Positions 6,311-52,700 of a DNA stretch of 64,000 nucleotides are shown piece after piece; the stretch's first letter is position 1, and the number at the start of each line of letters is the position of its first letter. Both the position numbers and the translations under genes were made by a program. Origin of the DNA: Cristatella mucedo (taxonomy: Eukaryota; Bryozoa; Phylactolaemata; Cristatellidae); NCBI GenBank assembly GCA_009760855.2, contig WPIO01000248.1:107001-171000 (forward strand). The letters run 5' to 3'. A model generated the notes under the pieces. The model did no database searches. It worked only from the letters and a program-made list of their open reading frames with translations, and was not told where the DNA came from.

Positions 6311-6318
6311 ACTAGTCG

Positions 6319-7651: not shown

Positions 7652-7654
7652 ATT

Positions 7655-8889: not shown

Positions 8890-8938
8890 AGCTCCAGTGA
8901 TAGTTATTCCCTTGGACGGAATAACTATCACTGGAGCT
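8890..8938. repeat. Perfect 21-bp inverted repeat with 7-base loop
   Basis: Arm 1 is 8,890-8,910 (agctccagtgatag...), the loop is cttggac (8,911-8,917), and arm 2 is 8,918-8,938 (ggaataactatcac...). Every base pairs. The flanks do not extend the pairing. It is not part of any repeat seen twice in the window. Confidence 0.9.
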
Positions 8939-9059
8939 TCAGAATACACGTTGACGAGTGTCAAAACCTTACAAAGACTGTGTCCTCAGATAATCAGAAA
9001 CAATGCTAGGCATAATTATGTACCAGAACCAAGCACGTGGCACCATCAGCAATTTTAAG

Positions 9060-9720: not shown

Positions 9721-10496
9721 AAAATCATGCGGCAGTGATTGAGTGGAAGCAGCAGCAGTGGTGATCATGCTGCATTAAATGGGAGCACGCGGATGCTAGG
9801 CAAGCAGGCGGTAGCAAGGGCAACAAGGCCTGCCGATAGGTCACAGCAGCCAACCGGGGACCATGGCAGTCAGCATTCAGGACGAGCCGGCCGGCAACAT
9901 AAATCACAAGGAGGTACTACACGACGCCTCAAGACTCAGTGCTGTATTGCATTCACGGGGACTGCTGTCATGCGATTGCTTGTGCTGGAACACGAGCTAA
10001 TGCTAGTGCAAATGCTGGCTGGGAAAGCTGCCCTTGCTGCTGCCAGCTAGGCATTGTAGAATCTCTCCAGGCTCCCATTCTGGTTTACATATCTCATCTA
10101 CCCTCCGTCAGAGTCTTCTGAATATGGGTATAGATTCGAGCAGTGGCATCGGACTGCATAAATTTTAAATTGAATGCTGCACATGTAAGCCCTATGATAA
10201 TTGGATTAATAAGTCAGGCAAAGTTTCTTCAAGAAGATGGCCTTATTCAGTCTCTGCAATAATTTTTCGGATGTTGGAAAAGCCACTTTCCTGACCTCGT
10301 TCCAGATATTCTCTCGTCGAGAATACTGTGAAGGAAAGGCACTCAAATCTGGAAAAAACGCGATACGTCTATAGAAATGGTTATGGTATTCATTTGGCTC
10401 CGCCAGTAAATCTGCAATTAAATAAGCAATAAATCCAGGAGTCCTGTTAAAGAACAGCCTTTGAGTAGACGATGACATCAGCTTAACAGTTACGTC
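9721..10496. other. No gene recognised
   Basis: GCA-rich at first (9,740-9,900), then A+T-rich. A 90-codon minus-strand frame at 10,206-10,478 has a fairly protein-like composition (for example RRENIWNEVRKVAFPTSEK) but matches nothing I recognise and has no second copy for comparison. I would not call it a gene without transcript evidence. Confidence 0.3.
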
Positions 10497-10820
10497 TGCT
10501 TACTTTCAGCTACAAAAATTGCTAAAGTTCGGGGTTTGGTGGACCGGTGTATAACGCCTAAAGAGGTGTATCCATTTGTGACATCCCGTGGCGACTTTTG
10601 TAACTCAGTTCTTGCTAATGTGCAGACATGCCCAATCACTTGCTTACTTTTGGTGCAAAACTATGCAGCTGTGCTTGTCTTCTGTGAGCGTCGCAGTTTG
10701 TCACAGGACGCCTTTTTTTACTGACCTGCTCTATATCCCAACAAGCACCTCATCGACTTCAATGTCCACTCAATTACTTTGAGGTTCTTTAATTCTCTAG
10801 TTTCAGCATACCTATGAGCA
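10497..10820 (+). pseudogene. LINE reverse transcriptase C-terminal fragment, decayed
   Basis: Begins tactttcagctacaaaaatt, matching the LINE's tattttcagcttcataaca, then gtgacatcccgtggcgactt (encodes the usual SRLDFCNS region in intact copies), then ttggtgcaaaact. It is the longer counterpart of 6,319-6,520. Stops and frameshifts make it inactive. Confidence 0.65.
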
Positions 10821-11888
10821 ATGTTACCAACTAGGTGTACAGTTATTCAACCACTGTGTGACTCGAATCATGTATGCAGACCACATAGACACCTCAGCTT
10901 AGTCTAAATCCAATAGCATTGCCAAATTTAGGATCGAGAAAGAATAAACAACCTACTCGACGTATATACGACCGGCATAAACTACGGCAGTGGCCGTACG
11001 GAGTGGCTCTAAATCGGGTGACAAAAGGAAGCACATTATCAAGGATGTTGTTATGACTACTGGTAATATGAAAGAAGGCTTCAAATTGCAACCAAAACCG
11101 ACGACAGCGTTTGTTTTTTTGAAGCTCAGATGTTTTAATTAAGATATCAATTCTTGCAGCACATCTCAGGTAGTTATGCAAGTCGTTCCTACTAGGTTAG
11201 ATAACGGCATGCAACTTTGCAGATAGTGTGAGACCAGATGATGTCAAGCAATCCCACAAATCTACGTGCGAAGTTTATTCGAGACATATCACATATCCGA
11301 GGGCGACGGTTAGCAATTCACATGGTCAAGATATGGCTCCGGCCTAGTCACCATGTACACACAGGTATAAAAATAATGATAATAATAATGCACTTGATAA
11401 AACACCCTCAGAGAACTTAATCTCTTTCGAGGTGTTCTACATTTGCCGCAAAGCGGAACGTGATTGAATAATGAGTCGTATCATGCTTGACAAGCAACAT
11501 GAATAGCATGGTTAGGGGTGACATGCACAGGGTCAGCATGCAAGTGCAGTTAGTGGCAGCTTGCACAGTGTCAGCACGCATATGGTTTTGAGGACGCTCT
11601 AAACGTGACATCAGAAATTAAACCTAGCTGTCTCTAAAAAGCTTCAGAGTGATGTGAAACAGCTATGTTAGTGGCTTGTCAAGCCGCATTACAGCTAGCA
11701 ACGCCAAAAGCTATGGAAAGCAGCTGCAAAAAATAGATCGGTCACCCCACCTGAGCAGTTCCATGCCTAGATGACAAGGTCGGAGTCAAATAGACCTACA
11801 CTCGCATTGGCTAGATTATTCAATCAAGATGGCTAGTTTTAGCGCAAAAGCAGTGATTTAAGAATACCTGTGGCTGCAAAGCAATCGT
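10622..11888. repeat. Composite LINE repeat, copy 2
   Basis: Pairs with 6,319-7,592 over its full length. It extends further left into the LINE fragment (to about 10,497), so this copy keeps more of the parent structure. Confidence 0.8.
11371..11595 (-). mobile_element. 5'-truncated LINE 3' end
   Basis: Starts with an ATT-type tail (aataatgataataataatg on the plus strand), followed by cacttgataaaacaccctca, gagaacttaatctctttcga and ggttaggggtgacatgcaca. It is the counterpart of 7,091-7,300. Confidence 0.85.
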
Positions 11889-30833: not shown

Positions 30834-31201
30834 TCTACGTGTTTAAAGTCTTGTCACTCAGTTTTAGGTTACTTCGTTCTTTGACTACAGCCTACCTATC
30901 AGATCAGCTCCCCACCGGGCAAAGCATCATAAAACCAACTTTTTGGAACATAAATGTTTACCCATACCTCATACCAACCTTAAATCACTTGCAGACCGTT
31001 CATTGTGTTCGAATGCTCGCAAAGCCTGGAACTTACTTTTGACTTGCGTCACGACATTCTTGACGTGACTACATTTAAAAGAAATTTAAAACGCACGTAA
31101 GTATGACAGCCTTTAATAGATTTCTGTGATTGACCCTTTATTTGCTTATGCGTGCTGAACCTGTTGCATCCTGCCACCAACTACACTTGCATGCTACCCA
31201 T

Positions 31202-31380
31202 AAATAAATAAATGCAAGCTGATTAAACAGCCTCTGTTAGTATAGCGACAGAACAACCTTTATGGCCGTCACCACTGCTTGCAGTGGCGATAAAGAATCG
31301 CCCGCCGACGGAATCGAACCCATGACCTAGGGACCAAGGTCGTGAAAGCAACCACCTTGCCTAGTGTGCCATCACGGCCC
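31202..31380 (-). repeat. tRNA-derived SINE, family 1, 179 bp with target-site duplication
   Basis: On the minus strand: A-box-like tggcacactagg, B-box-like gggttcgattcc, a body with ccactgcaagcagtgg (itself a short hairpin) and an ATTT-type tail. The direct repeat acccat flanks it at 31,196-31,201 and 31,381-31,386. The LINE sequence around it is restored if the SINE and one acccat are removed. Confidence 0.9.
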
Positions 31381-31484
31381 ACCCATGTGCGTGTTAATCA
31401 TACTCTTGATCATTCAGGTGTTCATGGAAAATTGTACCACTCACCATTCGTTCGTGTTTCTTTTGCAGCACATGTAAACTGCCT

Positions 31485-32860: not shown

Positions 32861-32875
32861 GATATGCAAGAAAGA

Positions 32876-33043
32876 AATATTAGCTGATTTGACAGAATCT
32901 TTTGAAAAGCGACATTAAAGCCTTTGCTGCTATCAATACCACTTGCAGTGTCGATAAGGAGTCACCCATTATAGGGTTCAAACTGCGACCTGTGTACCGA
33001 GGTTCGCGAAAAGCAACCGCCCAACCTAGTCTGGCGTCACGCT
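32876..33043 (-). repeat. tRNA-derived SINE, family 1, diverged copy
   Basis: agctgatttgacag, then tgaaaagcgacattaaagcc, then ccacttgcagtgtcgataag, then gggttcaaactgcgacctgt and ccaacctagtctggcgtcac parallels the family 1 copies in order. The tail is degraded to aagaaatatt. Confidence 0.75.
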
Positions 33044-33662: not shown

Positions 33663-34610
33663 AAAGCTCAGCTAGTTCAGCTGCAGGTCAGAAGCCTTCC
33701 GTCTGGCCCCTCTATCGGATGTGCTCGGCAAGCTCTCCCACAGCGCCCATCTTTCTGTCTCCTACGCTTTACCGGTGCATCGCGCAGCATACACCCACTG
33801 CTTGCTAGCCGACACAGAGAGCCGGGCAGATGCCCTGGGACGATTGGATGGCTAGAGGCTTGAGGAAGCAGCCCCAGCAACCAAGCGGCTGCCACCGACC
33901 TTAGCACAAAGGCCAGCAGTCGCTTCGGATAGACAAGCTGATCGTCCAAGGAGATACTCGCAAGTCTCAAAGGAAACCAGACGCTGCTAGCAGCATGCCT
34001 TCTGCCAGTTGTCACTTCCTTCCCAGCTTCCTTTGCTGACATAACTGCCAAGTGCAGGGTTGATGCCGGTGGCTCTTCTTCTAGCCAGCCTTAATGCTAC
34101 CAGTCCGGTTCTCCAAAGAGCCGATGGCTCTGGTTCTGAGAACCTGTTGTAAATTAAAGCTCAGCTAGTTCAGCTGCAGGTCAGAAGCCTTCCGTCTGGC
34201 ACCTCTCTCAGGTGTGCGCCACACGCTCTCCCACAGCGCCCAGCTTTCTTCCGCCCAAGCTTTTCCGGTGCATCGGGCAGCCTACGCCCAGCGCCTGCCA
34301 GCTGACACAGAGAGCCGGGCAGATGCCCAGGGAGGAGTGAACGAAGCGGCCTCCTAGTCAGGTTAGAGTGAGGAAGCAGCCTCAGCAACCAAGCGGCCGC
34401 CTTCGACCCCCAGCGTGAAGGCCAGCAGTCGCTTCGGATAGAGAAGCTACTCGTGCAAGCAGATGCTCTCAAGTCTCAAAGGAAACGAGACGTAGCTAGT
34501 GGCATGCCATCGGTGCCGGCGGCTTTTCTTCGAGCCCACCTTATTGCTACCCGTCCGGTTCTCCAAAGAGCCGATGGCTGCGCTTCTGAGTAACTGTTGT
34601 AAATTAAAGC
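33663..34610. repeat. Tandem duplication inside unit A (about 493 and 450 bp)
   Basis: aaagctcagctagttcagct occurs at 33,663 and 34,156; aaattaaagc closes the units at 34,151 and 34,601. Unit D has a single counterpart at about 47,240-47,700. The duplication therefore occurred within copy A's lineage. Confidence 0.85.
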
Positions 34611-34961
34611 AGATACGTTTAAGCCAACCTCAGTATGGCGGCCCGGTCAGGCTACGGCTTGTCGCGAGATCTAAGCTGCAGGTGTGCCTGAGAAACTAGG
34701 CTCCGCCCCCCCCCCGACAACATGGCTGTCGACACATCGACAGGAGGACAAAGGGGCAGGCATAAAAAATCTGCTCGACTATAGCTATTATGAATGCCAG
34801 CGACGTGGAGGTACCGATTTCTTGCTCAGGCAGCACTATCTTTAGGATGACTCGACAGGCTGTAAGGATCGCCTGAGGTTAGTTGTGTATGGCGGGTAGG
34901 GGTGAAATGGATTTAAGCCAGTCAGATAGAATTGCCTTTGGCACAGGGATAAATGATGTAA

Positions 34962-35049
34962 TATAATTATAATATTAATAATAATGTACTTGATAAAGCG
35001 CCCTTAGAGAACTTAATCTCTTTCTAGGTGATTTACATTTGCTGCAAAG
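34962..35049 (-). mobile_element. 88-bp LINE tail inserted in unit A
   Basis: taataataatgtacttgata, then agcgcccttagagaactta, ending ttgctgcaaag. It is flanked by gtaa (34,958-34,961 and 35,050-35,053). Units B and D read directly through this point (gtaaccttca). Only the terminal hairpin region was copied, an extreme 5' truncation. Confidence 0.8.
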
Positions 35050-35879
35050 GTAACCTTCACAACCAGCCCAACTCCCCAGTCAGCCGAGGCCTAGGACAGT
35101 CAGACGAAGCAGTCAGCCTTCGTGCAGCTGATTCACTTTATATGGACAAAGCCGTTAAAGTGGCTAAGTGATCGAAGTGGTTTTGTGCAGTGCCATCTAA
35201 AACGTGTACCGTCCGCTGCACTTGCACTCCCTCATTCAGGCACATGGATGCCTTGACTCACAGGCAGTCAAGCAAGCACGGTTGCACACTCATGCACACC
35301 CAAATGCCGCAATGTCAGCCACACCCAAGCACTGCTAGGCAGGATTATGTAGCCTGCAATGAAGCACACCTCGTTTTCCATGCAGTCGCACGCCTTGGCT
35401 TACATCAAGAATTGCAGGCAGCCTCAGATCCGCAACGTCTGTAAATGGCAGCTCAATGCTGCTAGCCAGCGACGCTTGCACTTTATGAGGAATAGAGCCG
35501 TTACCTGCACATCCACAAGTCGCTGCTTGACATTTGCGAGCAACCACATCAGGTATGCCACAACTAGCAAGTAATTTAGCAACGTCAAAGGCAGCTAATT
35601 TTTGATATTTAAAAAATATATTTCTTTCGATTGACTTTTTGAGCCAAGACTTTAACTTCTTAGGTTCCCACGATGACTGTTCATCTTTTGCTGACAGTTC
35701 TACCTAAGTCACTATGAAACCAGACTTTAATCACTGTCGATTATGAAAATGTGCACATTGGAAAATCCCAGTCTATTACATTCAGGTACCTTCGCTTTCT
35801 TAGTGCTGCTGATCACACGAATATTTTGCTATGCAATTAAGTTGGAGCGAGTAGTTCTACCACCAGCAGCTGTTCTGAG

Positions 35880-36090
35880 ACGGATGAACAAACGGAGAGA
35901 GGGAGATGCTGAGACAGGAGACAGGGAGATACAGAGACAGAGAGAGAGACAGAGATGGAGATGAAAACAGAGTCAGAGACAGAGACGGACACAGAGAAGA
36001 AGACAAAGACAGAGAGAGAGACGGAGATATAGACGGAGAAAGATTCAGAGATAGAGACGGAAACGGAGACGGAGAGAAAGGAGAGAGCAA
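35880..36090. repeat. GA-rich tract (gacaga/gagaga), imperfect
   Basis: Purine-rich low-complexity DNA of unit A; homologous tracts occur in B and C. It produces a 203-codon Ser-rich minus frame that is an artefact. Confidence 0.9.
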
Positions 36091-36920
36091 GGGAAAAAAA
36101 TACAAAGGCAGATGCAATGGGAGATAAGAAGACCAGAAGAAGAATGCAAGTTCGATGATAGAGGTAGAATGGAAGGTGATTTGGTGAGAAGGTGAGCAAG
36201 AAAGAGGAAGGTAAATACTGAGAGACAAATGGAAACAACGAAAATGAAAGAATGAAATATAAGCAAGAAAGTGAGAGCCTATGATAGGTAGAAACATAGA
36301 GAGACGGAGATAGAGAGGCATAGACCGAACGAAGCTAGGGGAAAGACTGACAATTGGAGAGTTAGAGACAGAGACAGAGCATGCAAGGAAGAGGCAGACA
36401 GATGAGATGAGAGAACAATGAAAGAGAGCCGGAAATAGATAGGCACGATCCTTACCAGCCAATGACACTCTTATTGTGAGGCGGTAGTGATTCGGTCATT
36501 TCTGATGAAGTCGAGGTCACCATGAGCACATGCTAGCTGGCTGCAGGGCACAGTATAAACATGTTAAGTTTCCCATGCCTTAGTCGTCGGTAAACGATAC
36601 CCACACGTCACAGGAGCAGGTTATTCTCATGTAGGTAACAGACGCCTACTGGAAGTAAGCATAAGGGACTATCTATCTACGAGATCCAACCTAGAGATGG
36701 TGAGAGACCGAGGCCCTGGTGAGGAGATGGCCAAAGGGAGGCAGACTGGGGGAAAACCTAAACTATGGAGGCAGTAACTACAAACGGCAGCGATGAAAGG
36801 AACTTTGCAAAAAAAGATAAAATTGCCAGTGTAGTCATACATTGCTGGCCACTAGTGTTAAAGGGCATACATATCCCAGCAGGTCCTCGACTGCTAAAGT
36901 CACATCGATCATTCTTATGC

Positions 36921-36924
<4 letters not shown>

Positions 36925-36960
<36 letters not shown>

Positions 36961-36990
36961 ACACACTCTCTCTCTCTCTCTCTCTCTCTC
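36925..36990. repeat. (CA)n then (CT)n microsatellite
   Basis: About 20 CA units followed by about 12 CT units. Copies B and C carry CT tracts at the same place in the unit. Confidence 0.95.
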
Positions 36991-38324
36991 AACTGTTACC
37001 GACTTAAGCATATCTATTCCAGCCGACCTGAGCTCCTACTTTCATACTACTAATTACTATCGACAGTCTTCCTAATTCAACCAATCGTGTCATGATTGCG
37101 TACTGCATAGCAACAAATCTGCCTGCTACCCATGAACAACCAAAATCGCTTAAGCAAACTTGCTCGCATGAAAATGCAAATGCATGATTCTGAGTGTAAA
37201 AGATATGCATTCACAAATGCTTGCGTGGCAGTGGGTGAGGGTGAGACAGGGGTAGAAGATTGATGAAAAACTGTGGACTGTTGATGGAAGTGGTTGGTTG
37301 CGGGTGTGGCTGTGGAACATGACCGACGACTGCCGTTAATTCTGATTCAAAAAATTACTGGACACACAATGCGAGGTATAACATGTGCATTCAATAGCTG
37401 ATGCTATACACCAAACAAGCAAGGCTTCTGCCTCGGCAAAGACAACTGCTAAGCTTTAGCAACGACTGGAATATATTAGCAGTGAGTTTATAAAACCTTT
37501 GCCAAGTAGGAAAGTACAGTTATCATACCAATCACAACAATCATGCTACCTTGAGGCAGATGGACGGAGACGGACCTTGTTCTTAAGAAACACGCAAGCT
37601 TTCAATTCAATATAGTGTAAGTATCGAAAGACAAGCCTAAATGGGGTGAAGCAATTGCCGGGGGCCGAGATGTTTGTGCCTGGCTGCAGGATGCTACCGG
37701 CACCACAACCCCCTGCCCCGGCGGTTGCCATCAGGAGATAACGATCCCAATTTATCTGCACTTATTTATCATTAAAATAATATTTCTCGAACATTAATTT
37801 AATAAGGAAAGATCAGCAGATCAGTGAAAAGTTAGATACCACGTAGACGGCGGAATGAACAACATGGTCCAGGCGAGGCCTTAGATAATAGGAGCTGAGC
37901 TGTAGGGCGATGTGGGAGTGAGCCTAGTATTCACAGTTTAAATTTACATTTACAGCAATCGGACAGGACAGCCTGCCTGATAAACAGTACCTTTTTTTAG
38001 CAGGGCTACTGCAAGGGGGTGTCGGACGAAGGAGCAATGGCTCCACAAACGTTCTCAGTGCATGACAAACTTAACTTGCGACTGCCCGTGATCGCATTCG
38101 AAATCTAGGATAGCACTTAACGCATGCACGAGCGGCTACCGACTAGACCACTCATTATTTTTTTAGACACGGAAACGATTCATATAGCCCCATCCTTCGA
38201 CATTTAACTTGTCTAATTGAACCAAGGTACCATTATTTCTGATCGGGAGGGTTGGGAGCCGGCCAAAGCTCAGTGAAGCCTCATGGGCTTCGATAGCCTT
38301 CCAAAATCACGAGTGGTGTCGCAC

Positions 38325-38712
38325 ATAATAATAATATTAATACTAATAATAGAAATGCACTTTATATATCACCCTCAGAGAACTCGAGCTCTTTCTAGGC
38401 AGTTTACATTTGCTGCAAAGGAAAATGCAAGCAAATGGTGAGTAATATCATGCTTGATAAACAAGATTACTGAAATGATTAGGGGTGACAAGCACATGGG
38501 CAGCATGCAAATTTGGTTAGTGGCAGCATGCACAGTGTCAGCACGCATAAGCACACGAAGGACGAATCACAGGCACCCACTCAATGCTGTCCTCAATAGG
38601 TGTGTTTAAGTTCTTTTTAAATGTGGTCAAGTCAGGGGATGTTCTGACGCAAGTCGGGAGGGAGTTCCATGCTTTGGGAGCATACGGAGTAAATGCACGA
38701 TCTCCAAAGGAT
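38325..38712 (-). mobile_element. LINE, 3' half of a copy split by unit B
   Basis: Contains the tail, the 3' untranslated region and coding sequence. Reading on the minus strand, the open frame is FGDRAFTPYAPKAWNSLP with no stop. It stops at aggat (38,708-38,712), exactly where the segment at 42,190 takes over in the same codon. Together they form one 5'-truncated LINE of about 1 kb. Confidence 0.9.
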
Positions 38713-39756
38713 CATTGGCAGCCAACCCATTGACAGGAGCACGTGGGGGCAGGCATAAAAACGCTGCTTGGCTATTCCTATTCTGAATAGTAGAGACATG
38801 GAGGTACCTATTTTTTGCTCAGCATGCACTATCTTTACAACGACTCGGCAGGCGGTAAGGGTTGGCCGAGGTTAGCTGTGTGAGGCCGGTTGTGGTGCAA
38901 TGGACTTAAGCCAGCCAGATAGCAGTGCCTGCTGCACAGGGATCAGTGTTGTAACCTTCATAACCAGCCCCACTTCACAGTCAGCTTAGGCTGAGGACAG
39001 TCAGATAAAGAAGGTAGCCTTCGTACAGCTCTGGATAGGGACATAACAATTAAAGTCAGTAAGCCCCGGAAGTAGCTTAGTGCAAGGCACATCCACACCG
39101 TGCACAGTCAGGCACATGTATGCCCTCACCCACAGGCGAGCACAGTTACATACAAGAACACACGCAGATATGCGCCACAATTTCCGGCCTTACAAAAGCG
39201 CCACTAGGCAGGATGCTGTTACCTGCAACGACGCAGCTCCTCGTTTTCCATGCAGTCAAGCACATCGGCTTACATCAAGCAAGCCGGCCGCCTCGGCTCT
39301 GCCACGACTGTAAATAGCAGCTTGTTGCTGCTAGCCAGCGACGATCACACTTTGTAAGCTGTACAGCCGTGGCCTGCAACTTCAGTGGTTGCCGCTTGAC
39401 AGTCGCCAACTGCCACATCAGGCATGCTAAAACTAGCAAGCAATTTAGCAACGTCTAAGGACACTGATTTTGAATTACAAATTATTTCTTCAGATTGACG
39501 ACTTGAGACATGACTTCAAATTCTTAATTTCCGACGATGAGAGATCATTTTCTGCAGAAAGTTTCTCATAAACCACTAGAAAACTATACTTCACTCTACG
39601 TTAATCATGAAAATGTGCATAGTTGGAGATCCCACTGCCGCACCGTTGGCTACCTTGGTTTTCTTAGTGCTGCTGATCCATCGAGTGCAATGTAATGCAA
39701 ACTAATGAACAGAAAATAGTGCTACCGCCCTCTGCTGGTCGGAGAGAGAGGAAGAA

Positions 39757-39759
39757 ACA

Positions 39760-39793
<34 letters not shown>

Positions 39794-40110
39794 GAGACAG
39801 AGATTTGGAGAGTGAGAGAGAGACAGGGAGACAGAGAGACAAAGAGACAGAGAGACACAGAAAGAAAGACAGATAGAAAGAGAGACAAAGAGACAGAGAG
39901 ACAGAGAGACAGAGAGACAGAGAGGCCGAGTGACCGAGAGACAGAGAAACAAAGAGACAGAGAGACAGAGAGACAGAGAGACAGAGAGACAGAGAGACAG
40001 AGAGGCCGAGTGACCGAGAGACAAAGAGACAGAGAGACAAAGAGACAAAGAGAGACAAAGAGAGACAGAGAGACAGAAACCGACAGACACACTGACCGAG
40101 AGAGCGAGGA
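39757..40110. repeat. (CA)n and long gacagaga-type tract
   Basis: About 18 CA units followed by some 300 bp of agagacagagagacagag repeats, with agaggccgagtgaccgagag occurring twice about 80 bp apart. The repeat opens frames of 120-160 codons on both strands (Cys-Leu-Ser-Val on minus, Arg-Asp-Glu-Thr on plus). These are artefacts. Confidence 0.95.
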
Positions 40111-40980
40111 AAAAAGACAGACACAGGCAGATTTAATTAGAGATACGGAGTCCAGAGAGGTACAAGTAGATAGCTGAAAGCTTAATGAGGAAGGTAGAAA
40201 GGAGGGCGAGCAAGTGAGAAAGAAGAAGTTTAAATACTGAGTGGTGAAGGGAGACGACGACAGATAGAGGGAAATAGAGGTGAGAAAGTGAGAGAATGTG
40301 TTGGGCAGAAATATAGAGGGATAGACAGTATGAAGTAGTGGGACAGACTGACAATGGGAGAGTTAGAGATAGAGACAAAGCATGCAAGGACGAGGCAGAC
40401 AGATGAGATTAGAGAGCAGTAGAAGCAAGCCGGCAGTAGGTATGCATGATCCTCACCAGCCAATGATGCATGATGCTCCCTCTTCTTGTGAGGGGAGGCG
40501 GTGGAGATGGTTCAGACGAAGTCGACATCGCCATGAGCAGCTACTGGCTTGCTGCAAGGCACAGTGTAAACATGGTCAGTTTCATAAGCCTGACTCGTCG
40601 GCAAACCACATTCATACCTCACGGACGATGGCTTTTCTCATGCTTGCAACAGACGACTGCTTGCATAAGGAGCTAGGTAGCTTTTAGCTTCAAACAAGAG
40701 ATGATGGGAGACCGAGACCCTGGAGAGAAGATGGCCAAAGGGAGACAGACTGGGGGCAAATCCGAACAGAGGCCGCATCTGCTACAAAACACAGCAATGA
40801 TGATCAACGTTGAAAAAGAAGATACATGTGTCAACAAAGTCCTACACTGCTTGCCACAACCGTCGGAGGGCATACACATCCCTTTGGGGATCCTAGACTG
40901 TCCTAGACTATGACCTAGACCTATGTCCTAGACTGCTATAGTCACATCGAAAATTCTTGTGCAATACCATACTCTCTCTC

Positions 40981-41021
<41 letters not shown>

Positions 41022-41361
41022 CACCTGATAAAGTGCCCTCAGAGAACTTAATCTCTTTCTAGGCGCTTTACATTTGCTCCCAAGGGAAATGCAATTGAAT
41101 GGTATCTAAAACATGATTGAAAAACAAACAAAATGAATAATATGGTTAGGGGTGACATGCACAGGGTCAGCATGCAAATGTGGTTAGTTGCAGCATGCAC
41201 AGTGTCAGCACGCATAAGCACGTGAAGGACGAATCACAGGGAACCAATAGATGCTGTCCTAAATAGGTGTTTTTGAATTCCTTTTAAATGTGGTCAGGTC
41301 ACGGGATGTTTTGACACAGGTCGGGAGGGAGTTCCAGGCTTTGGGAGCATACAAACTAAAT

Positions 41362-41363
<2 letters not shown>
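40981..41363 (-). mobile_element. LINE 3' end inserted into a CT microsatellite of unit B
   Basis: Begins with a pure (TAA)13 run on the plus strand (40,981-41,019), the youngest-looking tail in the window, and extends to acaaactaaatg in the coding end. CT repeats lie directly on both sides (40,972-40,980 and 41,364-41,403). Confidence 0.9.

Positions 41364-41403
<40 letters not shown>
41364..41403. repeat. (CT)n microsatellite
   Basis: About 20 units; the right half of the CT tract that was split by the LINE insertion. Confidence 0.97.
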
Positions 41404-41406
<3 letters not shown>

Positions 41407-42189
41407 CTACTATGCCGACACGGGCATACCTATTCCAGCTGACCTGAGCTGCTGCTTTAATGCTACTCACTACTATCGACAGCCTTCCTGATTCAACCAT
41501 CCGTGCAGCAATCGTGATTTGCATAACAACAAATCTGCAGACAACCCATGAAGACCAAAATCGCCTTAGCAAATTTGCTGGAATGAAAACGCAAACCCAT
41601 GCCTGTGAATGCTGAAAGACATGCATTCACAAAGCCTTGTATGAGAGTGGCTTGTGTGAGGTGGGGTATAGAACAGTTTGGGTGGGTGATGGTAGAGGTT
41701 AGGTACGGGTCTGGCTGTGGAACACGCCCGACGACTGCCACTAATCCTGTTTGAAACAAATTACTTTGCGAAAATTGCGAAATTAACAGCTGCATTGAAA
41801 AGCTGATGGCACACACCGGACACGCAAGCCATATACCTCGAAAAACAAAACTGCTAAGCTAGAGCAACGACAGTAAAGTATTAGCAGTGAGCTGAGCAGG
41901 TGCAAAAAATCATGGCAATATTAAAAATCTGAATGCAAAGCACTCTCAGAAAACTTGGTTGCTACTAGGAAGCTTTACCGCTCGCTGCGTGGGAAGTAAA
42001 GACCTTATAGTTTGCAAAAACTTTCGCCCAGTGAGGTAAAGTACACTCAGTATGCCATACACATCAATCATGCTACCTGGAGGTGGACGGACGGTACCTG
42101 GACATCAGCTCTGTGAGCTAGAACTGAATATCGTGGTGCTGTACCACAGAGCAGCAAGTATAAGACGTAACGTAACGTAATCAATCCAT

Positions 42190-42790
42190 AGGATTTAAGG
42201 TTTATACGAGGTATTTCTAGACTGCTGGATTCCGAAAAGCGAGTAGTACGATGCTTGGGCTGATGGGGGAGTATGTCGGAGAGATAGGCTGGAGTCATAG
42301 AATGTAGGGACCTACAAGTGAGCGAAAAAACCTTTAAGTCAATCCGTTGCTTGACCGGTAGCCAGTGCAGGTCGGCTAGAAGTGGAGTAATGTGGCAACT
42401 GGGACGCTCACGACAGACAAGCCTAGCTGCCGAGTTTTGCACCAGCTGCAATCGCCTGATCGCGCCTGCTGGTAGGCCAGTAAGCAGTGAGTTGCAGAAG
42501 TCGAGATGAGATGTCACGAATTCATGGACCAACTTAGACGTGGTATCCTTATCTAAACAAGCCCGAGTTTTAGCAATGTCATGAAGCTGAAAATAGGCAG
42601 ATTTGACTGTGGAGCTGATATGGTCATCTAACGAGAGGTCACTTTGGAATATGACACCTAGATTTCGAGCTGATTCTACGGGAGATATGCTGACAGAGCC
42701 AATTTTGAGAGACAGCCTTTCCAATCTCTGAATCACACTGGGTTTGCCCATGACTAGTACGTTTTGTCAAGTTAGTTTTGTCATCGTTTA
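42190..42790 (-). pseudogene. LINE reverse transcriptase C-terminal region (5' half of the split copy)
   Basis: Minus-strand frame, open from 42,751 to the break with no frameshift: NLGVIFQSDLSLDDH, SHLDFCNSLLTGL, LQLVQNSAARLVCR, LADLHWLPVKQRIDLKV, SLHSMTPAYLSDILP, ending NLKS. These are the post-catalytic sequences of CR1/L2-type reverse transcriptases. The catalytic YADD lies upstream and is absent (5' truncation at about 42,790). Beyond the break the open frame runs into unit B and is meaningless. Confidence 0.9.
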
Positions 42791-42848
42791 TTCATGCAGC
42801 TGATCCACACGATGTGGACACACCTGCTAAAGTAGCTAAGCCATACCA

Positions 42849-42895
42849 GTGGTTTTGTGCAGTGAACGTCCACATCGTGCACTGCACAAAACCAC
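42849..42895. repeat. 16-bp perfect inverted repeat in unit C
   Basis: gtggttttgtgcagtg (42,849-42,864) and cactgcacaaaaccac (42,880-42,895) with a 15-base spacer. In A and D the left arm is recognisable but the right arm is not a perfect complement, so the hairpin is particular to copy C. Confidence 0.85.
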
Positions 42896-43569
42896 AATGC
42901 ACTTTGCTTTCACACCCTCATTCTGGCACGTGGCTGCTCTGACTCACAAGCTCGAAGGCGAGTACCGCCAGGCACTCATTCACATGCCAATGCCACAATG
43001 TTGGCCACCCTTGAGCGCTGCTAGGCAGGACGGTGTCGCCTGAAGCAATGCAGTTCCTCGTTTTCCATGCAGTCACGCACCTCGGCTTACATCACGCAAG
43101 CTGGGCATCCTCGGCTCTGCCATGGCTGTAAATATCAGCTCATCGCTGTTAGTCTACGACGATCACACTTTGTAAGCTGTTTAGCCGTGGCCTTCAACTT
43201 TACTGATCGCTGCTTGACAGTCGCCAGCAGCCGCATTAGGCATAGCAAAACCAGCAAGCAATCCAGGAACGTAAAAGGCAGCGAATTATTAAATGAAAAA
43301 ATATCTCCTCTGCTCGACATCTTGAGACAAGACTTAAACTTCTTTAAGTAGCCACGACTGCTTACATTTGCTGCCGACCGCTCCTCTAAACTCACTAGAA
43401 AAACCAGGCTTTCGTCTCTGTCAATTATTGAAATGTCCATATTTGAAAATCCTAGTTTAGCACATTCGGCTACCTTTGTTCCCTTAGTGTCACTTATCAG
43501 TCGAGTGCGGTGTTATGCAAACCAAGCTGGAGCAATTAGTGCTACTGCCGGCAGCTTTTTGGAGATGGA

Positions 43570-43578
43570 GAAAGAAAC

Positions 43579-43635
<57 letters not shown>

Positions 43636-43645
43636 GAGAGAGAGC
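43570..43645. repeat. (GA)n microsatellite of unit C
   Basis: Nearly pure gagaga with agg and caa interruptions, at the place where A and B have longer GA-rich tracts. Confidence 0.95.
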
Positions 43646-44499
43646 AAGGGAAAATGACATGCAAAGGCAGAGGCAAAGAAAAATAGGAAGACCTGAGAGG
43701 TAAAAGTAGAGAGCTGAAAGCTTGATGGGTCAGGTAGAATGGAAAGTGATCTAGTGAGAAAGAGGAAGCTCAATACTTTGAGACAAAGACTAGCAATGAC
43801 AGAAAGAGGGGAAAAGAAGCAAGAAAGTAAGAGACTGTGATAGGCAGAAATATAGAGAGACAGGGATATAAAGAGATAGGCAGGAGAAAGCTAGGGGACA
43901 GACCGACAATAGAAGAGTTAGAGACAGAGACAAGGCAAACAATCAAGAGGCAGACAGATGAGATTAGAAAGCAATGGAAGCCAGTCGCCAGAGATAAGCA
44001 CGGTCAGTATCAGCCAATGACGGGTGATACTTCTGTTTTTGTGTAGGGGAGGTGATGTAGACGGTCCAGATGAAGTCGACGTCGTCATGAGCCGCGGCTG
44101 GCTGGTTGCAGGGCACAGTATAAACATGGTCAGTCTCGCAAGCCTGACTTCTCGGCGAACAACACCACACCTCACAGACGTTGGCTTTTCTCTTGCTTGC
44201 AACTAATGTATACTGGAAGCAAGCACTTGGGGCTATCTAGCTACGATCTCTAAGCAAAAGATGGGCAGAGACCAATGCTCTGGAGCGGAGATTGCTTACG
44301 GGAAGTAGACAGGAGAGAGCAAACTCAAACAGAGGAGGCAGCAGCTACCAACAACGTCGATGAGGATCAACATTGCAAAAGAAGATACAAGTGCCAACTT
44401 AGTCCCACACAGCTGGCCACCACCTCCACAGGGCATACATACCCCAGCAGGTTCTAGACCACTAAAGTTACATCGACAGTTCTTATGCAACAACGTAAT

Positions 44500-44562
44500 C
44501 TCTCTCGCTCTCTCTTTCCTTCTCTCTCTTTCTCTCTCTCTCGCTCTCTCTCTCTCTCTCCT
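44500..44562. repeat. (CT)n microsatellite of unit C, imperfect
   Basis: ctctct with cgctct and ccttct interruptions. It lies inside a 167-codon minus-strand frame, where it encodes an Arg-Glu run. Confidence 0.95.
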
Positions 44563-47500
44563 TCTACTGCTGCCAACTCGGGCATATCTATTCCTGCCAA
44601 GCTGAGCTCCTACGTTCATGCTACTCACTACTACCGACAGCCTTCCTGATTCAACTATCGGTGTCGCAATCACGATTTGCATAACAGCGAATCTGCCGGC
44701 TACCATGAATACCAAAATCGCCTTGGAAAACTTCCAATCCCGAAAGTTCGAACGCACGCCTGTGAGTGCTAAAGGACACACATTCACAAAAGCTTGCACG
44801 GCAGTGGCTGGGGGAGAGTTGTAGGTAGAATGGGTATGGAAAAGTGTGGGTGAGTGACAGAAGACGTTGGGTATGGGTTTGGCTGTGGAACATGCCCGAT
44901 GACCGCCGCTAATTCTGATTGGAAAAAATTGCGTTCCTCAAACTGCGAAATTTTACAATTGCATTCAATAGGTGATGGCTTACACCGAACACACAAGCTG
45001 TAGGCCTCAACAAATGCAACTGCTAAGCTAGAGCCCGACTGGTAAATATTAGCCATGAGCTGAGCAGATGCAAACAATCATGACAATAATAACAATCTGA
45101 ATGCACAGCTTGTTAAGAGAACTTAGTGTCTACTAGGAAGCTTTACAGCTTACTGCAAGGGAAGTAATATCCGCATAGTTTTCAAAAACCTTTGTCAGGT
45201 GAGGAAAAGTACACTAATTATGCCAATCACATCAATCAAGCTACATGGAGGTGGAGGAACGGTACGTGAGCATTAGCTTTGTGAGCTAGAAATGAATACC
45301 GCGGTGCTGTACCACAGAGCAGCAAGTATAAGACGTAACCCGTGGATTCGTTGCACAATCTCTGTTACTCTTCACAGTAGCCAAGCAAGCCTATTTGTAA
45401 GGTATGAGCTGCTGCAGTCTCAACGACACTAGCGAGTATAAGCGATCCTCAAGTGGGCAACCGCCTCAACCATGCCGAGCAAACGGGGCTCCCGAGATGC
45501 AGCTTCGTCGTGAGAGCCCTGTACCGTCTGCACTGTCACAGCGAAAAGCAGCAGTACCCGCAGCACAGCCGAGGTCTTCGATTAAAAAGGAAGTAAATGA
45601 GCGCTGACTACGGTTGCAGCATTCGATACAGCTTAGCCTATAGGAAAAGCTTCTAGCACACATCGCAGTCGCTCAGCGATTTCACTTAGTCAAGCACATG
45701 CAAGAGGGAAGGGCATTTGCGGCATCCAAACAGCTTCAAGTGCATCGAGGAAACTGGCAGCCAATCAGTTCCGGCCAATCTAACGGCTGCTGCAGAATGG
45801 CACAGGTGCTCACAGCAGAGCTATACAGACCGGAGGACCAAGCTATCCCTACCGTGGCGACAGACCTAGTGCTGCGTAATACAAGCTAAGATACTCAGCA
45901 AGGCATGCTGCTGAGGTGAGAACCACGAATATTGAGTGTGCTCACCGGGCCCTGCAGCCAGAGCACCATGCAGCACCGCAAGTCCTTCAAATTATGCTCT
46001 CGGCAGGCATCCCAGGGGTGCAGCCTCCAGCTGCTCACGGCCCAGCGTTGTTCTCAAGAAAAAACGCTCAAGCTCTCATGTCGGGACAGAAAAAGTAACG
46101 AAAGACAGGCCTAGACGGGATGAAGACATTGCCTGGGGCCACGATCCCTGTGTCCTGCTGTGGGATGCTACTGCACCACAATCTCTGCCGCTGGCCCCGG
46201 CGGTAGGCATATGGAGGGAGGAAAGTACCCCAATTTGTCTGTACCTATTTATCACGACTATCATTATTTTAGAACATTAATATTACAAAAAAAGGTCGGT
46301 AGATCACGTTAAGTGTGTGCCACCACCTAAGCAGTGGCATGTACAATGTGGCCCAAGCAAGCCGTCAACCAGTGGGAGCTGAGATGTAGGAGGAGAAGGG
46401 AGTAAGCCTAGCATCTACACTTTACATTTTACATTTACAGCAGTCGGAAACGACAGCCTGTCAGATGAGCTGTACCTTCTAGCACTAGAGCCATTGCAAG
46501 AGGACGTCTGACGAAGGAGCAAAGGCTGCAGGGGCTGCACAAGCGCATTCAGTGCACGACACTGAATTAGTGACTGCCGTTAATTGTCCTCTCAATCTCT
46601 GGTAGCATTCCACGAATGCACGAATGGCTACCAGCTCATTGTCTTTTTCAAACGCAAACGATTCGTATGGTCTCTCCCTTTGACAGTTAGCTTGCCTTAA
46701 CAAGATGCAGGTATAATTTAAGCTAATCGGCTGTCAGGATTGAGAGCTGGCCTAAGAGAAGTGCATCCATCCTCGTGGCCTCTGATAGCCTTCCAAATTC
46801 ATAAGCTGTGCCTACATGCCATTGCAACTATGCAATATAGAAAAAATGGGTCCACCATCATCCTAGCGTTCCCCCTGCGGTCAGAGCAAGCAGAGGCATC
46901 AGATAAAGAACACATCATCTGCCGGCTTCATTTTACATGGCAGCAGAATAGCTTGAATAGCTATTATCTCTACTTGCAGTGAAAAATAAAAGGGATTTCT
47001 GAGGCTAGCCTCGAACCCATAACATTAGTCGTGAAGCTGGAGCACATCACTGCTGGGCTCTGAACCTATTCTTATGCTTGGTCTAAATTTGTGCTGCACA
47101 GAAAAAGTCAAACTTTGAGTTATTGCATTGCCCCTGGTATCCACTGCATTCGGTTGCACCTCGATGCTGTGGCTGTCTACCTGCCGATCACCCATGCAGG
47201 CAAATGTGAGCGCAACACAAGAGTTGGCTCGCTCACCTGCTGCTCAGAAGCCTTCCATCTGGCCGCTCTCTCTGGTGTGCACCTGCGAACTGTCCTGCAG
47301 TGCCCAGCTTGCTGACGCCCAGCAGACGCCAAGCATTGGCAAGCTGCCTCACAGAGCTGCGCAAAAGGCCAGGAAGAAGTCGTCGGCTGGTGGTGCGAGA
47401 AAGGAGAGATTCACCAAACAAGCAGCCGAGGCCGAATCCCAGCGCATCGGCCAGCAGTCACTTTGGATGAGGAAGCAGTTCACGTTAGCAGATACTGTCA

Positions 47501-47931
47501 GGTCTCAAAAGGGAACGAGAGGCTGCTAGCAGCATGCCTGCTGCCAGTTGCCAATTTCTTCCAAGCTTTCTGGCCGGCCGGACCGGCCGAGGCCACGGAA
47601 GGCACAAGTGGCTCTTCTCCTGGCTAGCCCTATTTCTACCAGTCATGTTCTTCAATGAGCCGCTAGCTGCAGTTCTGGGATACTGTTGTAACTGAAATCA
47701 GACGAGTTTATGGCAAACGGCCGTACGGCGACCAGGTAAGGCTACACTAAGAGACGAGATCTAAGCTGCATTTGCACCTGAAAAAGCAGACTCCGGCCTC
47801 AACAGCACCATCGGCAGCCGAACCATCGACAGGAGGACACGGGCAGGCATAAAAAAGCTGTTCGCCTGTTGCTATTATGAATACCAGCGACAGGGAGGTA
47901 GCAATTTCCTGCTCAGCAAGCACTATCTTTA

Positions 47932-48110
47932 AATAAATAAATCCTAGCTAATTAAACAGCCTCTTTTTCTATAGCGACAAAAGAGCCTTAATGGCAATCA
48001 CCACCGCTTGCAGTGGCGATAGAGGATCGCCATCGCAGGAATCAAACCCGCGACCTCGGGACCGTGGTCGTGAATGCAACCGCCTTACCTAGTGTGCCAT
48101 CGCGGCTCAC
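47932..48110 (-). repeat. tRNA-derived SINE, family 1, 179 bp, 17-bp target-site duplication
   Basis: Flanked by agcaagcactatcttta (47,915-47,931) and agcaagcactatattta (48,111-48,127), 16 of 17 identical. Minus-strand order: A-box-like tggcacactagg, B-box-like gggtttgattcc, body with ccactgcaagcggtgg, tail atttatttat. The length equals the copy at 31,202-31,380. Units A and B have the empty site (gcactatcttta). Confidence 0.95.
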
Positions 48111-51030
48111 AGCAAGCACTATATTTAGCACTACTTGGCAGGCTGTAAGGGTCAGCTGGGTTTAGCTGTGGGGGGTTGGAGAGAAATTGATTGCAGCAGA
48201 CCAGAAAGCCCGACCGGTGGAACAGGGATCAGTGCTGTAACCTTCATAGCAACCCCCCATCAGCTGAGGCTGAGGACCGTCAGATGAAGCAGGCAGCTTT
48301 CACGAAGCTGACTCACTGAATAGAGGCAGACCCATCAAAGTGGCTACAACACGGCAGTGGCTTAGTGCAGTGCACATGCACACTGTGCATTGGGCTTGCA
48401 CAGGCTCATGCAGTTACATGGGTGCCCTGACTCACAGGCTCACAAGCAAGCACAGTTACTCACTCAAGCACTGGTGCAGACGCACGCGAGGCCAAGCACC
48501 GCTAGACAGGATGCTGTAGCCTGCAAAGAGGCAGCTCTTCATTTTCCTGTCAGTCGTTCACAGCGAATAACATCACGCTAGAAGTGCATCCTCGGCTCTG
48601 CTGTGTCTGCAAAGGTCAGCTGGTCACTGCTAGACTGTGAGGCATGGGTTTTACGAGCCGTAGAGCCAAGGCCTGCACATCCAATGGTCGCTGCTCGCCA
48701 GTCGCTAACTACTGCAACAGGCATGCCAAAACTAGCAAGCAATTTAGCACTATGTAAGAAAGCTAATTTTGAATTACAATTTTTTTTCTGCTTGACGTTT
48801 TACGACGACACTTGAAACTCTTACAGACTCCATGACGACTGACAATCTGTTGCTGACAGCTGGACAGTGGGAAAAAGAGACACATAATGCGACGGAGAAG
48901 CAGACAGGTGAGATGAGATAGAAATGAAGGATAGCCAGCAATGGAGATGCTCGATCCCTAATAATCGAGGAAGCGTGATGCTGCCTCATGTTCTTCCACT
49001 TCTTCTTCTGCTACAAGAACAAAAGAGCCGACTTTAGCTGAAGAGGAAAGCTAGTGACCCGTTAACACTATGGCAACCAAGTGAAAACGTCAGCCCCACA
49101 CATTCAAGCCTCGGAGGAGGTGCCACAAGGCTAGAGCACCATTCGGTCCGACTGGCAGCGGCATGCGCATAAAGTGAGCCGCCTGGTGCATGCCATGCAT
49201 CGCCAATCGCACTTGCCTGAACGTAAGCGCCATGCATAGGGAGCGCTAGCAGACATGCATTCACGAATTCGTGCATGACCGTGGCTGGGTGGGGATGAGA
49301 CAGAATGGCAGAAGGGTGATGGAAAAGCATGGGTGAGGCTGGAAGAGGTTGGATTGGGGTCGGCCCATTAGACAACGCCCGGGGACGGCTACTGATTAAG
49401 CTACAAAAAATCACTGCGCAAAAACTGCAAGATTTAATTGTTGCATTCAATAAATAATATCAAACAACAAAAACGCAAGGCCTCTGCCTCGGCAACGACA
49501 ACTACTAAGCTGGCACAACGAGTGGTAAATATCAGCAGTGAGTTTAACAGGTGCAGCTAACCATGGCACTACGAACGACTTTAGTGTCCTGCATTGTAAG
49601 AGAACTTGGTGTCTACTCATGAGCTTTACAACTCGATCGCTGCATAAAAAGTAAAGGCTTACAGAACCTTTATTTATAAGTAGTCAAAAGTACACTCGTC
49701 ATGCTATTCAGATCAACCATGCTGCCCTGCCGTGTGGCTGACAGACGGTGCACGAACCACAGCTCTGCTCGGGGAAGACATCGATACCACAGCTTAGCAC
49801 CACAGGCCCACCAGTATTAGACGCGATCCGGGTGTCTGTACACACTCTCTTCATAGTTGTGGAACTGGTGTTTTTTTAGGATATGGCCTGCTGTGGTCTC
49901 AAAGGCACTAGCAAGTGTCGGTGTGTATTCTCAAGTGGTCACCGGCTGCTGTAACACTGGGCTCCCTTGCGGCAACTAAGTCACTTGAACTCGATGCCGT
50001 CTGCACTGTCTCAGCAAAAAGCAGCAGTGCCAATAATTCGATCGAGGTTCATCCTTCGATTTAAAAGAAAGTAAAAGAACAAAGAGTGCGGCTGCAGCTT
50101 TCGACATACCTTAGCTCACAGAAATTACTTACGGCTGACATGTCACTTAACCAGTGAATCGACTTGGTCAAGCACAGATGAGAGTTAATGGCACTTCCGA
50201 TGTACCAGAAGATTCTGGCGTTCAGTGTGAACTGGCCGGCAATTTGTTCACACCATGCCAACAGCTGCGGCAGAACGGTTTGGATGTGCACCGTGGAACC
50301 ACTAAGCCAGGTGAACTAAGCTATCAGTGGTCCGATGATGGACGTTGTGTTACGAAGACAGGCTAAAATATTTAAGAAGGCGTACTGCTGAGGTTCTTAC
50401 CATGAATATCGAGTCTTCTTGTCGTATCCTGGCCCCAGAAGAGAAGCACAGCCGCACGATCGCACCCTAAGGTGGTAATTTGTGGCCTCAAGGTGTACGA
50501 GGCAGCATGTCAGGGGGCATCCTTTAGCTGCTCACTGTCTAGCATTGTTCTCAAGAAACACGCAAGTTCTCAAGTCATGATAGCAAAGTGTCGATAGACA
50601 AGCTTAGACGGAATGAAGCAATTGTCTAGGGCCGCAATACCTGGGCCTGGCCTTACGAGGCTACCTGCACCACCACGCCCTCTGTTCGCCTCACAGGTCA
50701 CTTTGCAAGTAAGCCGCCCCAGTTTGCTAGTATTTATCTATGCATATCAGAATAATTTTTAAACATTGCGATTAGATTACTAACGAAGATCAGCATTTTC
50801 TTTGGAGTGTGGGGAGTGGCTTAAATAGTGGAAAGCAAATTGTGGCCCAGCCGACCAGTCAGCAAATGGAAGCTGTTGTAGGACAATGGAGGGAGCCCAG
50901 CAATTACATGACATGCTGTCGGACACGAAAACTTTCAGATATTCAGTACCTTGGCCACAGAGCTGCTGCAAGAGGGCATCGGACGAACGAACAGAGGCTG
51001 CAGTGGCTTCGCAAACATTTTATATATAAA

Positions 51031-51831
51031 AAAGTCTACTGTCCAAACTGCCTACTTTCAGCTGCATAACATTGCTAAAATTCGGGCTTGTTAGTTAAGG
51101 ATACCACATTTAAGTTGGTCCGTGCAGTCGTGACATCCCGTCTCGACTTCTGCAACTCACTGCTTACTTGCCTACTGGCATGTGCAACCAGGCGATTGCA
51201 GCTAGTGCAAAACTCCCCAGCTAGGCTTGTTTGTCGTGAGCTACGCAGCTGCCATATCAACTTCTCGCCGTACTGCACTGTCTACCAGTCAAGAAGCGGA
51301 TTGACTTCAAGGTTTTTTCGCTCACTTTTAGGTCACTTCATTCTTGGGCTCTTGCATATCTCTCATATCTACTACCCCACCAGGCCAAGCATCGTAACAA
51401 ATGATTTTTAGAATCCAACAGTCTACCAATACCTCGTACAAAACCTCAAATCATTTGGAGCCCATATATTTAGTTCGTATGCTCCCAAAGCCTGGAACGC
51501 CCTCCCGACTTGCGTCAGAACATCCCCTGACTTGACCACATTTAAGAAGAACCCTAAAACACACCTATTTAGGACAGCCTTTGTTAGGTCCCTGTGATCT
51601 GTCTTTCGTGTGCTTATGCGTGCTGACACTGTGCATGCTGCCACTAACCACATTTGCATGCTGACCCTGTGCATGTCACCCCTAACCATGTCATTCATGT
51701 TGTTTTTTTATCAAGCATGATGTTACTCACGATTCAATTGCATTTTCCTTTGCAGCAAATGTAAAGCACCTAGAAAGAGATTGAGTTCTCTGAGGATGCT
51801 TTATCAAGTGCATTGTCATTATTATTATTAA
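51031..51831 (+). mobile_element. LINE 3' portion inserted in unit D
   Basis: Runs from the post-catalytic coding region (tctcgacttctgcaactcac, encoding LDFCNSLL; gcagctagtgcaaaactccc) through the 3' untranslated region to aaagagattgagttctctga and tatcaagtgcattgtcatta. It is frameshifted after SCHI, so not functional. About 800 bp of a 5'-truncated copy. Confidence 0.9.
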
Positions 51832-52103
51832 AAATTCTCTCAGTACGAGACACATATACTAGTGACTGGCAGTAGTGTCCCTTGCAATCTCTTAAAGCAT
51901 TCCGCACATGCTTAAGGGCTTACCTATTGAAATCATGATTTTGTTTTTAACACGGATCCATTTAATAAGATTGCAATCCTTCGACTGTGAACTTGCCTAA
52001 ACAAGATGCTAGAAGCAAATTTGGCAGATCAGTTAGGTTTAATTTTAAAGTTAATTTTGGCCGATCAGTTTGGCCAATCAGTTAGGCTCATGAGCAGTTG
52101 GTT

Positions 52104-52258
52104 GTGACGGCGCACTTGGTTGGGCGGCTGTTTTTCATGTCCTCGGGCAAGAGTTCGTGGTTTTGATCCCGGCTGTGGATGAACCTGTATCGCTGCTACA
52201 AGAGATAAACAGCTCTTTTGTGGCTATACAGAAAGAGAATATTAAATCAGCTTGCAGG
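52104..52258 (+). repeat. tRNA-derived SINE, family 1, old copy in plus orientation
   Basis: gtgacggcgcacttggttgg (A-box region), gtggttttgatccc (B-box region), then gctcttttgtggctatacag and ttaaatcagcttgcagg reproduces the family 1 order in the opposite orientation to the other four copies. It lies just 270 bp downstream of the LINE in unit D. Confidence 0.7.
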
Positions 52259-52370
52259 CGAAAGCGAGGTGCTGCATTGTGGTTTCCATTACTCTCACAA
52301 ATTCACAAGCCTGCCGGTATACCTAGGCAGTATCAAAACCCTGCCGCATTTTTTTCTTAGCATTCCCCTT

Positions 52371-52700
52371 TAGGTCGGAACCAATGGAGGCACCAGGCGA
52401 CGACCAACTAATCCTACAGCTTCATTTACTTTAGCATCTGAACAGCTCGAATAGCAATCACCTATAGTTTCCGGGGGCAATAAGTGATTTCCTGCGGCTA
52501 GACTATAACCCTTGACCTGGACAGTTAAGTAGGAGCCCCTCACCATTGGGAAGAAGAAACTATTCGTTTGCATGATCTGCGTTCGTGCTGCTCTGAGCTA
52601 TTACAGCTAGGAGATGCTGCATCGCCCCTGGTATCCACTGCGTTTGGGTGTTCCTTGCGGCTACTGCTGCTGCCTACTCACCATCCATGCATGCAGGGTG
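52371..52700. repeat. Start of a fifth repeat unit (E), truncated
   Basis: catcgcccctggtatccact (52,620) and tactcaccatccatgcatgc correspond to the start of unit D (47,127-47,200); upstream, aacagctcgaatagcaatca matches aatagcttgaatagctatta at 46,949. The match ends at about 52,700. Confidence 0.65.

What the first reader, a model, noticed from the sequence alone, without database searches (positions are those of the whole stretch)
38713..42189. A 3.5-kb repeat unit has landed inside a LINE, with a 5-bp direct repeat
The LINE pieces at 38,325-38,712 and 42,190-42,790 join within one codon (NLKS to SFGD) if unit B and one copy of aggat are removed. Related copies A, C and D are not inside LINEs. 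B therefore moved as a discrete piece, yet has no LTRs, terminal inverted repeats or coding capacity I can see. Its right end carries a short gtaac repeat.
Basis: seen in the sequence. Interest (0 to 1): 0.72.

Follow-up and report, generated by a model that had tools for sequence, protein, structure and literature searches.

The report
Broken tandem-repeat fragment patched into LINE
A 3.5-kb piece of an old, locally repeated stretch of DNA sits inside a dead retrotransposon, most likely because a chromosome break was patched with nearby DNA, so it looks like ordinary repair scarring and not a new mobile element.

Summary
One LINE copy (minus strand, 38,325-38,712 plus 42,190-42,795) is split by segment B, with a 5-bp direct repeat (aggat) at the split. 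Three other copies run unbroken through that point, and both pieces have similar age. The interpretation changes once B's relatives are placed. A, B, C and D are same-strand units of one tandem array (33.66-52.70 kb, period ~5.4 kb, 63-75% identical over the 6 pairs). B's ends are not ends of the repeat: A and D stay alike left of B's start, C and D right of B's end. B shows no terminal repeats and no Pfam domain above cut-off. Its right joint carries about 18 bp of filler, and its last 37 bases match unit C exactly, the longest identical run in the B-C comparison. Filler and an internal fragment of a local repeat are signatures of double-strand-break repair; a published survey of interrupted TEs shows such joints, sometimes with 4-21-nt target duplications. 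No unit in the window is similar enough to be the main donor after the LINE landed, so the donor is another allele, a lost neighbour, or resident B itself. The host genome could not be searched: 13 requests did not complete. Low interest.

The parts
38325..38712 (-). 3' piece of the split LINE copy (A/T-rich short-repeat tail at the low-coordinate end)
   Evidence: aligns to L51, L59, L41, L58; terminal branch 0.088
42190..42795 (-). 5' piece of the same LINE copy (5'-truncated)
   Evidence: aligns to L51 and L59; terminal branch 0.080; outer limit set by where homology to unit A begins, 42,791-42,796
38708..38712 (.). left copy of the 5-bp direct repeat aggat
42190..42194 (.). right copy of aggat
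   Evidence: unit C has ggatt 4 bp beyond the matching point, so microhomology is possible
38713..42171 (+). segment B: internal fragment of a tandem-array unit, equivalent to D 47,809 through C 45,339
42107..42171 (+). last 65 bp of B, 61 of 65 identical to C and the best of 2,377 windows; its final 37 bp are identical to C
42172..42189 (.). 18-bp filler at B's right joint, gtaacgtaatcaatccat: a copy of flanking gtaac, and aatcc which is the reverse complement of flanking ggatt; its last bases can also be aligned loosely to unit D
34156..38324 (+). array unit A, cut at its right end by the LINE
42791..47215 (+). array unit C, cut at its left end by the LINE
47216..52695 (+). array unit D, containing a LINE on the other strand (51,035-51,830) and a short interspersed repeat
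33663..34160 (+). extra copy of the unit's first ~500 bp at the array's left edge
   Evidence: 73% identical to 34,156-34,610
40981..41371 (-). second, separate 5'-truncated LINE copy (L41) inside B, next to a (CT)n run

Best explanation
An old local tandem array of ~5.4-kb units received a LINE insertion. Later a double-strand break opened inside that LINE, and the break was closed by joining in a 3.5-kb fragment of an array unit, copied or cut from the same array. The donor was probably the other allele or a neighbour that has since been lost. The left joint has no filler. The right joint was finished with about 40-65 bp matching unit C and about 18 bp of locally templated filler. The 5-bp repeat comes from filling in staggered ends, or from microhomology. 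Shown: the single split LINE, the tandem array, B's ends lying inside the unit, the filler, the C-like end and the lack of terminal repeats. Inferred: the break, the repair pathway and the donor.
For: One LINE split. B's ends are internal to the repeat: A-D homology continues left of B's start (62 vs shuffle maximum 17) and C-D homology right of B's end (47 vs 19), 0 of 500 shuffles reaching either. The units are in tandem on one strand, and the array starts and ends at nearly the same unit position (C 47,227 and C 47,202), as expected from duplication of a single segment. The filler copies the left flank (0.6% of shuffled fillers do as well); this plus a reverse-complement match to the right flank occurs in 2% (features chosen after seeing the sequence). 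The last 65 bp match C at 94% against 75% overall; 1 of 2,000 shuffles and 1 of 2,000 block-shuffles reach this. Repair-mediated duplications found as interrupted TEs in human DNA show microhomology, filler of 1-68 nt and TSDs of 4-21 nt, with a TSD in 6 of 39 proximal cases examined (PMC2671141 sections 6 and 7).
Against: No unit in the window fits as the main donor: B-A, B-C and B-D distances are 0.326, 0.307 and 0.461, but a copy made after the LINE landed (terminal branches 0.08-0.09; 0.10 from a consensus) should be within about 0.2. B (3.48 kb) is longer than the proximal repair duplications in the cited survey (max 619 bp) and about as long as its longest distant one (3,424 bp). [quoted passage not shown] A 5-bp duplication is also what several transposon classes leave (general knowledge). 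The reverse-complement feature of the filler alone is weak (20% of shuffles). Part of the filler may be diverged unit sequence: the alignment pairs its end with unit D.
Confidence: 0.62

Rival explanations
1. Local shuffle: B is the resident unit between A and C. The LINE landed at the A|B boundary. Several breaks then rejoined pieces in a new order, leaving the LINE's 5' piece on the far side of B and losing the missing unit ends.
For: B is about as far from A and C as they are from each other (0.326, 0.307 vs 0.348), as expected of an original unit. No separate donor is needed. Unit ends are missing on both sides.
Against: Needs three breaks and relocation of a 600-bp piece in one or more events; nothing seen here demands it.
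Confidence: 0.16
2. B is a transposable element of an unrecognised kind that makes 5-bp target duplications.
For: Continuous empty site in three other LINE copies and a 5-bp direct repeat; a given 5-bp repeat has a chance of about 1 in 1,000.
Against: Both ends are internal to a longer repeat. No TIR or LTR. No Pfam family above cut-off in 11 of 11 B ORFs. No second copy of either terminus in the window with 2 or fewer mismatches; of 5 places with 3 mismatches to the left terminus one is D 47,809, the homologous position, which lies in continuous unit sequence.
Confidence: 0.06
3. The two LINE pieces are from two different insertions, one at each side of resident B, and only look complementary.
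For: LINE 5' ends fall near this point in other copies: L41 within about 15 bp and L58 within about 50 bp. The 3' piece is nearest L58 and L51, the 5' piece nearest L59.
Against: Coincidence within 5 bp is about 1% if breaks are uniform. The 42,190 piece lacks a 3' end, so it would need an extra deletion. The two pieces have similar terminal branches.
Confidence: 0.06
4. Assembly error or a collapsed mosaic of two haplotypes at a repeat array.
For: Tandem repeats and LINEs are prone to mis-assembly (general knowledge); no reads could be checked.
Against: No N in the window. Filler and a sharp split with a short repeat are not typical of mis-joins (general knowledge). The units differ by 25-37%, enough to be told apart.
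Confidence: 0.06

Closest known systems
Repair-mediated duplications found as interrupted transposable elements (Pace et al. 2009, PMC2671141; abstract and sections 6 and 7 read)
   Same: DNA inserted in a TE that otherwise continues; filler; a short target duplication in some; chimeric donors in some; no poly(A) in the proximal class
Class 2 templated sequence insertions (PMC5110952; abstract and passages seen)
   Same: A patch of other genomic DNA at a break, with microhomology or added bases and no poly(A)
   Different: Class 2 lacks target duplications; here 5 bp are repeated. Class 1 has duplications of at least 5 bp but also poly(A), absent here
Alternative end joining with templated insertions in Drosophila (PMC2895639; passages seen)
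   Same: Inserted bases copied from the flanks of the joint
   Different: No insert near this size in the passages seen; the pathway is not testable here

Membership tests
DNA transposon or LTR-type mobile element | Defined terminal repeats (TIR or LTR) | tested here: not met
   first and last 250 bp; direct score reached by 151 of 200 shuffles, inverted by 16 of 200
DNA transposon or LTR-type mobile element | Copies share the same ends | tested here: not met
   left end point crossed by A and D, right end point by C and D, the units that hold each region; rest of the genome not searched
DNA transposon or LTR-type mobile element | Target-site duplication at an intact empty site | tested here: met
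   aggat on both sides, LINE continuous in L51, L59 and L58; microhomology not excluded
DNA transposon or LTR-type mobile element | Transposase, integrase or reverse transcriptase (not required of non-autonomous copies) | tested here: not met
   11 ORFs of 80 aa or more in B, 0 above a Pfam cut-off; best sub-threshold match ZPR1 zinc finger, E 0.0059, 16.4 bits against 23
LINE-mobilised retrocopy (class 1 type) | Poly(A) or LINE-like tail at one end | tested here: not met
   read in the sequence: no A or T tract at either end of B, only the gtaac-type filler
Repair-mediated duplication | Insert interrupts an otherwise continuous TE | tested here: met
Repair-mediated duplication | Filler, microhomology or deletion at the joints | tested here: met
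   about 18 bp of filler with flank copies at the right joint; no filler seen at the left joint
Repair-mediated duplication | Identifiable donor sequence | tested here: inconclusive
   same repeat family next door, but no unit close enough for all of B; C fits the last 65 bp

The most novel reading that the evidence does not exclude
B is one insertion of a mobile element type without terminal repeats that moves fixed internal pieces of a tandem repeat and makes 5-bp target duplications.
Probability: 0.04. Interest if true: 0.65.

Novelty: new member of a known kind. Interest (0 to 1): 0.15.

Why it matters
It is a clear example of how a short direct repeat around an insert, taken alone, can pass for transposition. 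The test that separates the two is whether the insert's ends are ends of the repeat family. It also records breakage and rejoining inside an old tandem array. No new biology is needed to explain it.

Tried and rejected
Considered and dropped: a circular copy of a unit reinserted in the LINE, because B does not cross the unit-to-unit boundary (near C 47,215) and so shows no circular permutation. A LINE-mobilised transcript: no tail. A gene-bearing unit: Rfam 0 matches at gathering score in the window, ARAGORN 0 tRNAs (bacterial settings), no Pfam family above cut-off in 11 ORFs of B and 1 of C; other ORFs of A, C and D were not scanned. Copying of the whole of B from A, C or D after the LINE landed: too diverged.

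Controls and rows left out: one search printed only BLAST rows of 60 bits or more, self rows removed. In one search the distances of the 5' LINE piece to L58, L41, L20, L28, L14, L11 and L7 (41-47% identity) were not used, since those copies hardly reach or do not reach that part; its match to L30 is short (146 columns, 69%) and to L55 distant (74%). I used L51 and L59. In one search, 522 of 4,902 columns were masked as microsatellite, and LINE and SINE inserts were left out of the units. The B-A comparison also has a 65-bp window of 94% elsewhere (from B 40,345), so high-identity windows are not unique to B's right end; what is unusual is its position exactly at the joint. Ending the B-C alignment at the last matching base favours a run ending there by a few bases. 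The LINE beside B's right end scores 14 against unit C's continuation, reached by only 6 of 500 shuffles, so some similarity at that joint remains possible.

Full report
WHAT IS THERE. The window (64,000 bases, 46% GC, no Ns) reads like an animal genome with many LINE copies (impression, not tested). The name CR1/L2-like for the LINE is recalled, not tested. A longer copy at 58.9-61.9 kb has a reverse transcriptase match (RVT_1, E 3.4e-07) and a below-cut-off endonuclease match. One copy is split: 38,325-38,712 (3' piece) and 42,190-42,795 (5' piece), both on the minus strand. With one aggat removed the pieces join and align with no gap at the joint to L51, L59 and L58. Their terminal branches relative to L51 and L59 are 0.088 and 0.080, which fits one insertion of one age. 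Against that, the 3' piece is nearest L58 and L51 while the 5' piece is nearest L59. Two independent uniform breaks would agree within 5 bp in 1.2% of trials.

THE REPEAT IS A TANDEM ARRAY. BLAST of the region against the window shows that A (34.16-38.32 kb), B (38.71-42.17), C (42.79-47.2) and D (47.2-52.7) follow one another on the same strand, with an extra piece of the unit's head at 33.66-34.16 kb. A complete unit is about 5.4 kb, estimated by adding A's head to C (coordinates); no unit is whole in the window, D having inserts and gaps. The array begins at the unit position of C 47,227 and ends at that of C 47,202, as a tandem duplication of one segment should. Pairwise distances with microsatellites masked are AB 0.326, AC 0.348, BC 0.307, AD 0.443, BD 0.461 and CD 0.515. 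The units are therefore older than the LINE.

B'S ENDS ARE NOT THE REPEAT'S ENDS. In the 150 bp left of B's start point, A and D still align (score 62, best of 500 shuffles 17). In the 200 bp right of B's end point, C and D still align (47 vs 19). A has lost the region of B's right end and C that of B's left end, so each point rests on two units. The LINE DNA beside B's left end does not resemble the unit (498 of 500 shuffles do as well). On the right it gives a weak score of 14, which 6 of 500 shuffles reach, so a short stretch of similarity at that joint cannot be excluded. B lacks LTRs and TIRs and Pfam domains above cut-off (11 ORFs). A real insertion in the same array gives a yardstick: a short interspersed repeat in D (47,923-48,110) has an 18-bp target duplication with one mismatch (cagcaagcactatcttta / cagcaagcactatattta) and clean empty sites in A and B.

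THE RIGHT JOINT. B matches C up to gacgtaac (42,171). Then come 18 bp, gtaacgtaatcaatccat, and then aggat and the LINE. The filler repeats the flanking gtaac and holds aatcc, the reverse complement of flanking ggatt. The first feature is rare in shuffles (0.6%), the second is not (20%), and both together occur in 2% (chosen after seeing the sequence). The alignment also pairs the filler's end with unit D, so part of it may be diverged unit sequence. B's last 65 bp are 61 of 65 identical to C, the highest of 2,377 windows, and the final 37 bp are identical, the longest run in the comparison. Only 1 of 2,000 shuffles and 1 of 2,000 block-shuffles gave such an end; 38 of 2,000 shuffles gave a run as long anywhere. 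This fits a short repair tract or gene conversion from C at the joint. Unit C has ggatt 4 bp beyond the matching point, so the 5-bp repeat may be microhomology and not a filled-in stagger.

MECHANISM. The best reading is a double-strand break in the LINE, closed with a fragment of an array unit. Pace et al. (PMC2671141, abstract and sections 6 and 7 read) used interrupted TEs to find such events. In their table 6 of 39 proximal cases carry a target duplication (4-21 nt), filler runs 1-68 nt, and in 20 instances the insert was a chimera of two donors. Passages of PMC5110952 and PMC2895639 describe related insertions and flank-templated filler. What does not fit well is B's length and the lack of a close main donor: a copy made after the LINE landed should differ by at most about 0.2, and no unit in the window does. 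The donor would be another allele, a lost neighbour, or B itself moved by a local shuffle. That B sits in order between A and C says little, since any same-strand fragment would fit with some gap.

LIMITS. By its description the held set is prokaryotic, so this genome may not be in it. The other collections hold prokaryotes, phages, plasmids, E. coli or viral contigs, and metagenome scans were capped at 0, so I scanned none. Organism unknown. Paper searches answered; I make no claim that this case is unpublished.

VERDICT. Observation confirmed; insertion into a LINE supported, a discrete mobile element not supported. An ordinary, well-preserved repair scar in an old tandem array.

Noticed in passing
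47923-48110: A dispersed repeat with tRNA-like SINE look (recalled, not tested) inside unit D, with an 18-bp target duplication (one mismatch) and empty sites in A and B; relatives at 557-681, 31,194-31,382, 32,868-33,041 and 52,106-52,252 (inverted).
   Followed up: partly
42107-42171 and 45275-45339: B and C are 61 of 65 identical, the last 37 all identical, right up to B's joint, against 75% elsewhere: a possible conversion or repair tract.
   Followed up: yes
40981-41371: A separate LINE copy inside B stops within about 15 bp of where the split LINE is cut; L58's 5' end is within about 50 bp, so 5' ends may cluster in this part of the LINE.
   Followed up: partly
37567-37577 and 48853-49199: Unit A lacks about 0.8 kb present in C (45,262-46,048), and unit D lacks most of what A has at 35,697-37,145, in two stretches: other internal deletions in the array.
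   Followed up: no
5861-7949 and 6771-11350: Two other high-identity repeats (96% and 95%, spacing 1.8 and 4.3 kb), by identity younger than the array.
   Followed up: no
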